Shown one piece after another: positions 49,003-53,248 of a DNA stretch of 64,000 nucleotides. Source of the stretch: Mayamaea pseudoterrestris. Taxonomy: Eukaryota; Bacillariophyta; Bacillariophyceae; Sellaphorales; Sellaphoraceae. Location: positions 496,001 through 560,000 of the forward strand of contig BROI01000016.1 in assembly GCA_027923505.1 (NCBI GenBank). Reading direction: 5' to 3'. The notes under the pieces are model-generated. The model saw nothing but the letters and a program-made list of their open reading frames with translations. It was not told the DNA's origin and ran no database searches. Each line of letters begins with the position of its first letter. Within the stretch, counting starts at the first letter, position 1. The position numbers and the translations under genes are program-made.

Positions 49003-49223
49003 TTTCAGAGTTTAATTAGTTACAATCAGTTTATTTCTAATTTGCTTGGGTTGGACGAAGCTAAATTCTGGTTCTACCGGTAGTCAAGGTGGACCGCGGT
49101 AGAGTGCAATAGCAAGATGTCGATAGTGAGAAGTCGCACCGGCATACAATCGAGTCGTCGCGATTCATCCGATTTCACCACCACCAAAACGATTCGTTTT
49201 GTCATGATGAACACTTTGTGAAC

Positions 49224-50375
49224 ATGTCGCTCGACAACGGAGACCATCAGCAGCACCAAACTCCTTTACGTACATTAACGGAGGATGTCAACTCTTGGAA
49301 CAAGGCAAGCTTGCTGAGTGTTTCGCAAATCACCGCCGGTGGTTTGCAGCTACTCTTCCAACGTTCGCGCGAGATGCGTCGACTCGTGCGCGAAAACGGC
49401 GGCGGAAACCATCTGCTGCAGCACAAGCTATTGGCCAGTGTCTTTTACGAGGCATCCACGCGCACGGCATGCAGCTTCCAGTCCGCCATGATGCGACTGG
49501 GTGGCAACTATTTGCATGTGGAAGGTCACTACGGCGGAAACTCGTCGGCGGCCAAAAAGGGGGAGTCGCTGGAAGATACCATCAAATGTTTGGAATGCTA
49601 CGTGGACGTGACGGTGCTGCGGCATCCAGTCCAAGGAAGCGTGGAAGCAGTCATTCACATGGCGAATAAGCCGGTGATTAACGCTGGTGATGGTGTGGGA
49701 GAGCATCCGACGCAGGTATTTTTGTGCTTTTGTTTGCATTATATACTGGAGTATAAACTTTTGTGATTGTCACTCATCTCAACAATTTGGTTCTCATTTT
49801 GTTCTCACTGTTACTCATTTCATATGTAGGCACTTTTGGACGTGTTTACCATTTACGACGAGCTAAAAATGCACGAGGCCGAGCAGAAACGATCCCATTT
49901 GGTCGTTGTTATCTTGGGCGATTTGAAACACGGGCGCACCGTTCATTCCCTGGCCAAGCTCCTCTGCACGTCCAACATTTGGCAGGAGTCGCTGACGCTT
50001 CGTTACTGCTCACCCGATGGCTTGGAAATGCCGCCGTACGTGCAGCACGACTGCGCGCAACACGAACACGTGCAGCAGGAAACCATCCATCACCTTCGCA
50101 CCGCCATTGAAGGTGCGGATGTTTTGTATGTCACGCGCATACAGCGGGAGCGGTTCGACAACTTGGACGACTACGAAAAAGCGAATGGTTCCTACGTGGT
50201 GGACGCGTCACTCATGGAGAATGCGCCAGCGGAAATGGTCGTTTTGCATCCATTGCCCCGGGTGAACGAAATTACGACCGAGGTGGATGCGGATCCGCGA
50301 GCAGCCTACTTTCGGCAAATGGAAAACGGAATGTTTGTGCGTATGGCTCTGCTGTCTCTCATATTAGGAGTGTAA
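49224..50375 (+). CDS. PYRB: Aspartate carbamoyltransferase
   Basis: Second step of pyrimidine synthesis: carbamoyl phosphate plus aspartate to carbamoyl-aspartate. 345 residues from exons 49224-49715 and 49830-50375, with a 114-nt intron (CAG|GTATTT to ATGTAG) immediately after HPTQ. Carbamoyl-phosphate motif STRT is at 78-81, HPTQ at 161-164, and the aspartate-binding HPLPR at 304-308 in the 240s-loop region. It is a single-domain enzyme, so it is not part of a CAD-type fusion. No clear plastid presequence is visible: the N-terminus (MSLDNGDHQQ) is polar, which argues for the cytosol. An upstream GTG in frame is not needed. Confidence 0.95.
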
Positions 50376-50694: not shown

Positions 50695-51658
50695 ATGGCA
50701 CCGACGGCAGGAAGCCCTTCTGCAGCTGCTAATCCACCTGCTGCTGCCAAGGCGCAGCGGCGGGGAGCCTACAAGCAACAGTCGCGCGCCTATCCTCGCG
50801 GCGTCTGTTTGGATTTTCGCAAGCTTGGTGGCTTGAGCTTGCTTTCGTACATTGATCATCATGGTATGTTTAAAGTGCGTGTGTTCGGACGTGGAGTCGC
50901 ATTGAACGTATGAAACTAGTCATAATTGCATTCAATATATGTAGAAATTAATTGGATCTAATCATTCTCTTTCTTATTCAGGAGTCCCAGTTCGTTCCGA
51001 CGCTCCCCTCCACGAACTCGCCGTCGCTGTCGCGCGCCACTTTGAAGCTTCCGATGTGGACGAGGAGGAATGCATCAGCGGCTTTTTGGAGCGCCTCGAG
51101 AAAGGGCCAACGGCTCCCACCGACTACACCTTTCGGACCGCCTACTTTGATGGCCGCGGACCACCCGTTTCCGTCCGCAAGCGCCGCCGCACCAAGTGGG
51201 CGGCCCGGCCGGGTGAACAAGTGGCGGCCAAGGTGACGCGGACGGATGAAAACGGGTCCTGGATTCTCGCCGTCGTGCAGCGCTACTACGCCGACACGGA
51301 TACCTATGACGTTCAGGATGAGGATGATACCAGCAAGCTGATTCGCTTGCCGTGGAGTCATGTAATGCGACTATCCACTGGAACGGAAGGACGCTTTCAT
51401 CGCAGCACGGACTGCATGGCCATTTTTCCGGAAACAACCTCCTTCTATCGCGCCAAGGTGAGCAAGAATCCCATTTGGAAGTTGGACAAGAGTGGACCAG
51501 TTGTGAAGGAGATTATTGTCAAGTTTGAGGATGATGAGGATGCCCAAGGAAGGACCCCTCACCGCCGCGTGCCGAGTCGCTATGTTATTCCGTTGCCGGC
51601 TGATTACTTTTACGATGAAGCGGATGATGTTGATTTGGTGCCGCCAACGGCAAAATAA
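50695..51658 (+). CDS. SAP30-type Sin3-binding domain fused to SGF29-type double Tudor
   Basis: Predicted nuclear chromatin protein of 281 residues, exons 50695-50863 and 50982-51658, with a 118-nt intron (CATG|GTATGT to TTCAG) inside the first domain. Residues about 36-96 match the SAP30 Sin3-binding region: LDFRKLGGLSLLSYID, then LHELAVAVARHFE and a final DEEECISGFL helix, in the family's order and spacing. Residues about 131-263 match the SGF29 tandem Tudor of SAGA: GEQVAAKV, YDVQDED (acidic pocket for the H3 N-terminus), PETTSFYRA, VKFEDDED and PSRYVIPLP, so the aromatic cage residues (Tyr212 and Phe238 by alignment from memory) look kept. Sin3-HDAC and SAGA-HAT act in opposite directions, which makes the pairing striking. 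Both domain calls are from motif recognition, not a search. The linker (98-130) is basic, a possible NLS at VRKRRR. Confidence 0.8.
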
Positions 51659-52036: not shown

Positions 52037-53248
52037 ATGTCTAGGACGGCGTCAATACTACAGCTCTTGATACTGTGTAGTAGTCTAGCGAAATCATCGT
52101 TTGCTTGGATAGCGCCATCAGTGCCGCTCATTGCCACCACCAGGAACACAATACAGCCATTACGAGCAGCACGACGACGAGCACTCTTCATGTCATTATC
52201 CTCTACTCCTTCGCCATCATCCACCATGACGACATCTACTACTCCTGCTACTACAGAAGAACGAAAAATTGTCGCCAAGTCTAGTCTGCTACTGCTGGAG
52301 CATGTGAACATAAACATTCCCTCGCACGAGCATATTGACTTTTACTTAAATTTACTGAATCTTGGACTGGACCCTCGCAAGGCTGGCAACGTCATGAACA
52401 ATAACGAAACTAGCAGCAAGACACTCTGGGCCAATGCTGGCGTGTCGCAGTTTCATTTGCCGTACGGAGAAACGGCGCAGGTGATTCCAGGTCACGTGGG
52501 CTTGACGTTTCGCAACTTACAACAATTGCGAAACCGCATGCAACAATTTCCAAGCTCGTTCCAGTCGGCGGTGGAAACCATTGACGCACGCACCAACGTT
52601 ACTGTCATGACACTGACGGATCACTACGGCAATGTCTTCAAGTGTCGGCAGCAGCAAAGTCTCATCATGACGGATTCCGACTACCAGCTGCAGCCGCAAC
52701 CAATCGTTGGAACGAGCGAAAGTGACGTTGCCACTCGGGGCGCTGATTTGTTCGCACGCTACGGCAAGACGATCAGCGACTGCACCGGGATTTCCTACTT
52801 GGAATTTAATTGTCCGGTCGAAACGGCGGCAGTCATTGCCAACTTTTACGAGCATGTTTTGGGGGCGGCCACGACAGTGATGAGTGACGCCAACACGACC
52901 GTCGCCATTATTGCCATTGGCCAGATTGATGAACACGGACGTTCCGATCAGTCGCTCGTGTTTCGAGAAACCAGTGAACCACTGCCGCCCTACGACGGCC
53001 ACCACGTTGCTTTATACGTAGGCGAATCGCCAAGCGCCTTTGACCAAGCCTATATGAATTGCGAGCAGGCCAATGTGATTTGGGTCAATCCGCGGTTCAG
53101 CGACGCGGCAAATACAATCGAGGCGGCGCGCCACTGCAAGCAGTTTCGGTTCAAGGATATCGTGAATCTCAACACGGGCCAAGTGGTGTACGAGCTCGAG
53201 CATGAAGTGCGATCCATGGAGCATGAGTGCTGGACGGGTAGGAGATGA
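52037..53248 (+). CDS. VOC/glyoxalase-superfamily protein, probably plastid-targeted
   Basis: 403 residues, no intron seen. The signal peptide is followed by SSFA|WIAPSVP (Trp24 at +1), an accepted variant of the diatom plastid motif, and then an Arg-rich transit region (AARRRALF). The mature part from about 88 has two betaalphabetabetabeta halves of the vicinal-oxygen-chelate fold: LLLEHVNINIPS with DFYLNLLNLGLDP, and a second half around YLEFNCP with FYEHVLG. Metal ligands cannot be assigned with confidence: the first-half His (EHVNI) is present, but the usual second-half His is replaced in YLEF. A glyoxalase activity is therefore doubtful and the class is given only as VOC-like. Ser/Thr-rich 52-82. 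Confidence 0.72.
   Translation: MSRTASILQLLILCSSLAKSSFAWIAPSVPLIATTRNTIQPLRAARRRALFMSLSSTPSPSSTMTTSTTPATTEERKIVAKSSLLLLEHVNINIPSHEHIDFYLNLLNLGLDPRKAGNVMNNNETSSKTLWANAGVSQFHLPYGETAQVIPGHVGLTFRNLQQLRNRMQQFPSSFQSAVETIDARTNVTVMTLTDHYGNVFKCRQQQSLIMTDSDYQLQPQPIVGTSESDVATRGADLFARYGKTISDCTGISYLEFNCPVETAAVIANFYEHVLGAATTVMSDANTTVAIIAIGQIDEHGRSDQSLVFRETSEPLPPYDGHHVALYVGESPSAFDQAYMNCEQANVIWVNPRFSDAANTIEAARHCKQFRFKDIVNLNTGQVVYELEHEVRSMEHECWTGRR

What the first reader, a model, noticed from the sequence alone, without database searches (positions are those of the whole stretch)
50695..51658. SAP30-like Sin3-binding domain fused to an SGF29-like double Tudor
One 281-residue protein combines the Sin3 docking module of histone deacetylase complexes with the H3K4me3-reading Tudor pair of SAGA. 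Key SGF29 elements (acidic YDVQDED, FYRA, VKFEDDED) look intact. It could bring Sin3/HDAC to H3K4-methylated promoters, a reader-eraser link not known to me in model eukaryotes.
Basis: partly seen in the sequence, partly recalled or inferred. Interest (0 to 1): 0.78.

Follow-up and report, generated by a model that had tools for sequence, protein, structure and literature searches.

The report
Diatom SAP30–SGF29 chromatin fusion protein
In diatoms, a piece that docks onto the Sin3 gene-silencing complex is joined in one protein to a module that other organisms' gene-activating SAGA complex uses to read methylated histone H3, so the silencing machinery may read that mark with a borrowed part.

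Summary
Window 50695-51658 (+) encodes a 281-residue, two-exon protein with a SAP30 Sin3-binding domain (PF13867, 36.5 bits, cut-off 22.2) and an SGF29 double Tudor (PF07039, 96.5 bits, cut-off 23.8). Exon 2 alone passes for both, so the fusion does not rest on the intron. The genome matches the diatom Mayamaea pseudoterrestris. A 98% identical second copy exists. Of the 120 best homologues, 120 carry the Tudor and 114 the SAP30 domain; every row with a readable organism name is a diatom, pennate or centric. The methyl-lysine cage is conserved except Tyr238 to Phe, which in human SGF29 leaves H3K4me2/3 binding near wild type (PMC4589357).

A Sin3/HDAC complex that reads H3K4me3 is already known: yeast Rpd3L, through PHD fingers of Pho23 (ING) and Cti6 (PMC10224958). 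What is unusual is the parts: the only ING-type gene found here also ends in an SGF29 Tudor, without a PHD finger, and no plain SAP30 was found. Diatoms seem to have rebuilt a known reader-eraser link with a SAGA-type reader. Sin3 binding and histone binding are inferred. I found no paper on it in the searches named.

The parts
50695..50863 (+). Exon 1: Met1 to the first base of codon 57; basic/Ala-Pro-rich tail, SRAYPRG motif and start of the SAP30 domain
50864..50981 (+). Intron, GT...AG, phase 1, 118 nt; same position in the C2 copy (98 nt)
   Evidence: sequence; comparison
50982..51658 (+). Exon 2: rest of the SAP30 domain, linker, double Tudor, stop codon
50836..51094 (+). SAP30 Sin3-binding domain, residues 48-94 (intron inside)
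   Evidence: PF13867 36.5 bits, cut-off 22.2; three helices 46-56, 66-79, 84-97 in the model
51055..51090 (+). Third predicted helix of the SAP30 part, within residues 81-93 (approximate)
   Evidence: model
51212..51598 (+). SGF29-type double Tudor, residues 134-262
   Evidence: PF07039 96.5 bits, cut-off 23.8; best structural matches are SGF29-H3K4me crystals
51317..51325 (+). D169 and D171, at human D194 and D196 (acidic pocket; residue roles recalled)
   Evidence: alignment; invariant in 120 of 120 homologues
51425..51448 (+). Cage residues F205 (human Y238) and Y212 (human Y245)
   Evidence: alignment; invariant in 120 of 120; cage named in PMC4589357
51524..51532 (+). Cage residues F238 (human F264) and D240 (human D266)
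   Evidence: alignment; invariant in 120 of 120

Best explanation
The gene encodes the diatom's SAP30-type subunit of a Sin3/HDAC complex with a built-in histone reader. The N-terminal helices dock on the third PAH domain of Sin3; the C-terminal double Tudor binds the N-terminus of histone H3 when Lys4 is di- or trimethylated. The likely result is that the deacetylase is held near the 5' ends of active genes and trims acetylation there, as yeast Rpd3L can do with PHD fingers. Shown here: both domains, cage residues, predicted Tudor fold, conservation in diatoms, Sin3 and HDAC genes in the genome, no plain SAP30 found. Inferred: Sin3 binding, H3K4me binding, complex membership, effect on transcription.
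Against: The SAP30 part is a distant match: PDB E 0.015 at best, and neither Foldseek nor VIA showed a SAP30 row, their lists being filled by Tudors. The human SAP30 piece found nothing in the genome, not even the two fusion copies, which shows how far apart they are and that this search cannot exclude a plain SAP30. No Sds3-family match, though yeast Sap30 staples Sds3 to Sin3; that search has no eukaryotic control. No SAP30 zinc finger. Binding was not measured. SGF29 Tudors serve an acetyltransferase complex elsewhere, so this protein might act with one.
Confidence: 0.62

Rival explanations
1. The protein is the diatom's SAGA SGF29 that has gained a SAP30 domain, and it bridges GCN5/SAGA and Sin3/HDAC or works mainly with the acetyltransferase.
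For: Of the four kinds of Mayamaea Tudor aligned, its Tudor is the closest to human SGF29 (36% against 26-31%). Databases label relatives 'SAGA-associated factor 29'.
Against: It lacks an SGF29 N-terminal half. Ada3 and SAGA-Tad1 profiles found nothing in the genome, but no control rang, so this shows little. A separate Tudor gene on C24 could be the SAGA subunit.
Confidence: 0.2
2. The helical part is SAP30-like in sequence but has lost Sin3 binding, and the protein is a free H3K4me reader with another partner.
For: Weak PDB E-values; no zinc finger; Sds3 not found.
Against: Passes the curated PF13867 cut-off; core residues such as Y33, P34, R35, F41, L44, H55, H76, F77 and L95 are invariant in 80 aligned diatom sequences; few replacement changes against many silent ones between the two copies.
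Confidence: 0.13
3. The fusion is an artefact of gene prediction: two neighbouring genes read as one.
For: The intron has not been checked by cDNA from this species.
Against: Both domains pass in exon 2 alone in one open frame; same architecture in a second genomic copy and in transcript-derived relatives.
Confidence: 0.02

Closest known systems
Yeast Rpd3L / mammalian Sin3L HDAC complex (Sap30, Pho23/ING, Cti6)
   Same: Sin3 scaffold, SAP30-type docking subunit, H3K4me3 reading coupled to deacetylation (PMC10224958, passages).
SGF29 of SAGA (human 3ME9, yeast 3MP1)
   Same: Double Tudor PF07039, H3K4me2/3 cage residues with one Tyr-to-Phe change, closest solved fold.
   Different: No SGF29 N-terminal half (recalled as the part that joins SAGA); a Sin3-docking domain instead.
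Human SAP30 (2LD7) and yeast Sap30 (8GA8)
   Same: Sin3-interaction helices, PF13867 above cut-off, best PDB sequence matches of the N-terminal profile.
   Different: No SAP30 zinc finger; a histone reader is added at the C-terminus.
Diatom/Nannochloropsis ING-SGF29 proteins (C14 gene, P0121, P0191)
   Same: Another known HDAC/HAT-complex subunit domain joined to an SGF29 Tudor.
   Different: ING instead of SAP30 N-terminus; its Tudors form a separate group from the SAP30-linked ones in a 17-row tree.

Membership tests
SAP30 (Sin3-interaction domain) | PF13867 above the curated cut-off | tested here: met
   36.5 bits against 22.2; 114 of 120 unselected best homologues match at E<=0.01
SAP30 (Sin3-interaction domain) | Sequence kinship with solved SAP30 chains | tested here: inconclusive
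   Best four of 5 PDB matches are SAP30, E 0.015-0.08; single-sequence phmmer listed none
SAP30 (Sin3-interaction domain) | SAP30 fold by structure comparison | tested here: inconclusive
   Three helices modelled, block pLDDT 81-90 over residues 41-100; Foldseek and VIA lists filled by Tudors
SAP30 (Sin3-interaction domain) | Binding to Sin3 PAH3 | not testable with these tools
   Sin3 genes with a third PAH match exist in the genome; no complex could be modelled
Animal SAP30/SAP30L subtype | zf-SAP30 zinc finger PF13866 | tested here: not met
   No PF13866 match in the protein at E<=10; none in the genome at E<=1, no working control. That yeast Sap30 also lacks it is recalled
SGF29 | SGF29-type double Tudor PF07039 and fold | tested here: met
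SGF29 | H3K4me2/3 cage (human Y238, Y245, F264, D266) | tested here: met
   F205, Y212, F238, D240; Y238F keeps near wild-type binding in the human protein (PMC4589357)
SGF29 | Subunit of SAGA | not testable with these tools
   No interaction data; N-terminal half is a SAP30 domain
ING/Pho23 | ING N-terminal domain plus PHD finger | tested here: not met
   Neither found in this protein at E<=10

The most novel reading that the evidence does not exclude
Diatom Sin3/HDAC complexes have replaced PHD-finger readers by SGF29-type double Tudors on both SAP30 and ING, so that the module which brings the SAGA acetyltransferase to H3K4me3 in yeast and animals brings the deacetylase in diatoms. Acetylation turnover at H3K4-methylated promoters would then be set by competition between homologous readers tied to opposite enzymes.
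Probability: 0.38. Interest if true: 0.72.

Novelty: new variant of a known kind. Interest (0 to 1): 0.52.

Why it matters
It would show that the link between H3K4 methylation and Sin3/HDAC is kept while its reader is swapped (PHD finger for double Tudor), and it gives a one-gene handle for testing how diatoms balance acetylation at H3K4-methylated genes. The link itself is not new, which limits the surprise.

Tried and rejected
Artefact of splicing: rejected, both domains pass in exon 2 alone.

Novel reader-eraser principle: rejected, known for Rpd3L.

Absence tests: Ada3, SAGA-Tad1, zf-SAP30 and the human SAP30 piece found nothing, without a working control; Sds3 found nothing, its control ringing only in two prokaryotes below cut-off. 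None of these shows absence.

Fusion outside diatoms: not settled. The protein searches list 120 of 385 and 120 of 171 matches. Rows with a readable organism name were diatoms; most rows have none.

Tree of 17 Tudors: six homologues that my pattern missed were dropped; SAP30-linked (9) and ING-linked (5) rows fall on separate sides (96/93), but human, SRA and C24 rows have very long branches and their places are not used.

Weak ING match on C24:227827 (19.7 bits, below cut-off): rejected, it lies in a long coiled-coil frame.

Papers: the listing shows 15 of 4,746 papers, none with SGF29, so it says nothing on absence; others (8 papers; 5 papers) had nothing relevant by title. The phylogenetic survey I wanted is not held.

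A first attempt to file this report was malformed; the present one adds the unselected count and lowers the novel-case probability slightly (0.40 to 0.38), because one search shows how weak the absence of a plain SAP30 is.

Full report
What is there. The gene at 50695-51658 (+) lies between a two-exon aspartate/ornithine carbamoyltransferase gene (49113-50375; OTCace_N and OTCace) and an open frame at about 52037-53248 without a Pfam match. It has two exons (50695-50863, 50982-51658) and a 118-nt GT...AG intron in phase 1. The 281-residue product scores PF13867 SAP30_Sin3_bdg at 36.5 bits (cut-off 22.2, residues 48-94) and PF07039 SGF29_Tudor at 96.5 bits (cut-off 23.8, residues 134-262). Exon 2 alone scores 27.4 and 97.3 bits, so the fusion does not depend on where the intron is drawn.

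Organism and copies. The closest database protein is MPSEU_000163800 of Mayamaea pseudoterrestris, 98% identical, on a contig of 2,775,980 bases, the length of contig C2 of this assembly; the ING-type gene of C14 is 100% identical to MPSEU_000697600 of the same species. Mayamaea is a pennate diatom (lineage; 'pennate' recalled). The C2 copy keeps the intron position with a 98-nt intron; 65 codon pairs differ silently and 6 change the residue out of 281. That pattern means purifying selection on the protein since the duplication. The flanks align little better than shuffled sequence (5' flank 260 identities of 400 bases against a mean of 214 for 20 shuffles; 3' flank 227).

Conservation. The search found 385 proteins at E<=0.001 and lists 120. 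Scanned without selection, 120 of these 120 match PF07039 and 114 match PF13867 at E<=0.01; the database's own precomputed domains show both in 96 of 120 (my count). The second search (length window shifted) lists 120 of 171, with both precomputed domains in 108 (my count; the lists overlap). Readable names are Entomoneis, Seminavis, Epithemia, Nitzschia, Pseudo-nitzschia, Cylindrotheca, Ditylum, Cyclotella, Cyclostephanos, Thalassiosira, and two cut names, Amphi... and Aulaco...: pennate and centric diatoms (grouping recalled). Fourteen clusters bear the MMETSP transcriptome label and both domains (my count), which is cDNA-level evidence in relatives. A selected set of 79 homologues plus the window protein matched both domains in 80 of 80; it was chosen by a SAP30-part motif from 168 proteins and six rows were dropped (the near-copy P0001 and five with apparent retained introns), so it is biased.

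The SAP30 part. A profile of 12 pieces gives five PDB matches at E<=10; the best four are SAP30 chains (2ld7 E 0.015, 9v2w 0.048, 9v2v 0.05, 8ga8 0.08), the fifth an unrelated baseplate protein at 0.44. The model with 80 sequences has mean pLDDT 80.6 and three helices at 46-56, 66-79 and 84-97. Foldseek and VIA returned Tudors, so the SAP30 fold was not confirmed by structure. No SAP30 zinc finger is present.

The rest of the genome. PF07039 rings at five loci: the two SAP30 fusions; C14, an ING N-terminal domain followed by an SGF29 Tudor without a PHD finger; C4, a SAD/SRA domain with an SGF29 Tudor; and C24, a 691-residue frame with the Tudor only. PF13867 rings only at the two fusions. PF12998 (ING) is over its cut-off only at C14 (the weak C24 match is coiled coil). 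The ING-SGF29 protein is itself conserved: 76 proteins, 47 with both precomputed domains (my count), including diatoms and two Nannochloropsis proteins; Pfam scans confirm both domains in Mayamaea, Fistulifera and Nannochloropsis. Two Sin3-type genes (C1, C14) and seven places with HDAC-domain matches are present. The C14 Sin3 frame lies about 6 kb from the ING-SGF29 gene.

How it may work. In mammals SAP30 is constitutively bound to Sin3A PAH3 (about 10 nM, 1:1; PMC6295471, passages). In yeast Rpd3L, Sap30 and the ING protein Pho23 are core subunits and Pho23/Cti6 PHD fingers read H3K4me3 (PMC10224958, passages). In the diatom the two subunit types found here, SAP30 and ING, both end in SGF29 Tudors. 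The simplest reading is that the diatom Sin3/HDAC complex reads H3K4me2/3 with SGF29-type Tudors. Both H3K4me2 and H3K9/14 acetylation peak close to 5' ends of genes in Phaeodactylum (PMC4504042, passages), so mark and substrate would meet there. Binding, complex membership and effect are inferred. ING proteins also belong to acetyltransferase complexes (abstract start), so the ING gene does not by itself point to Sin3.

Novelty. Automatic annotation already names both domains for relatives ('SGF29 tudor-like domain/Sin3 binding region of histone deacetylase complex subunit SAP30'). No held paper has SAP30, SGF29 and Tudor together; two have SAP30 and diatom, on other subjects by title; nine have SGF29 and SAP30, none on diatoms by title or abstract start (listing only). 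Only open-licence PubMed Central papers were searched. I rate it a new variant of a known kind: a known reader-eraser link with an exchanged reader.

Noticed in passing
G000 contig C14 484.5-485.7 kb (-), locus L004:1492-2549: ING N-terminal domain fused to an SGF29 Tudor with the full cage (Y, Y, F, D) and no PHD finger; 283 residues, three exons, identical to MPSEU_000697600; relatives in diatoms and Nannochloropsis.
   Followed up: yes
G000 contig C4 1222.0-1224.3 kb (+), locus L003:1-2262: Long frame with a SAD/SRA domain (36.3 bits, cut-off 30.7) and an SGF29 Tudor (74.7 bits): an UHRF1-like pairing of DNA-methyl reader and double Tudor by another route (UHRF1 comparison recalled).
   Followed up: partly
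G000 contig C24 76.9-77.4 kb (-), locus L005:1270-3342: 691-residue frame with an SGF29 Tudor as its only Pfam domain and an acidic C-terminal tail; candidate for the SAGA SGF29.
   Followed up: partly
G000 contig C14 476.3-478.3 kb (+): A second, shorter Sin3-type gene (PAH repeats, weaker Sin3_corepress match) about 6 kb from the ING-SGF29 gene.
   Followed up: no
window 52037-53248 (+): About 400-residue open frame downstream without any Pfam match at E<=0.01.
   Followed up: no
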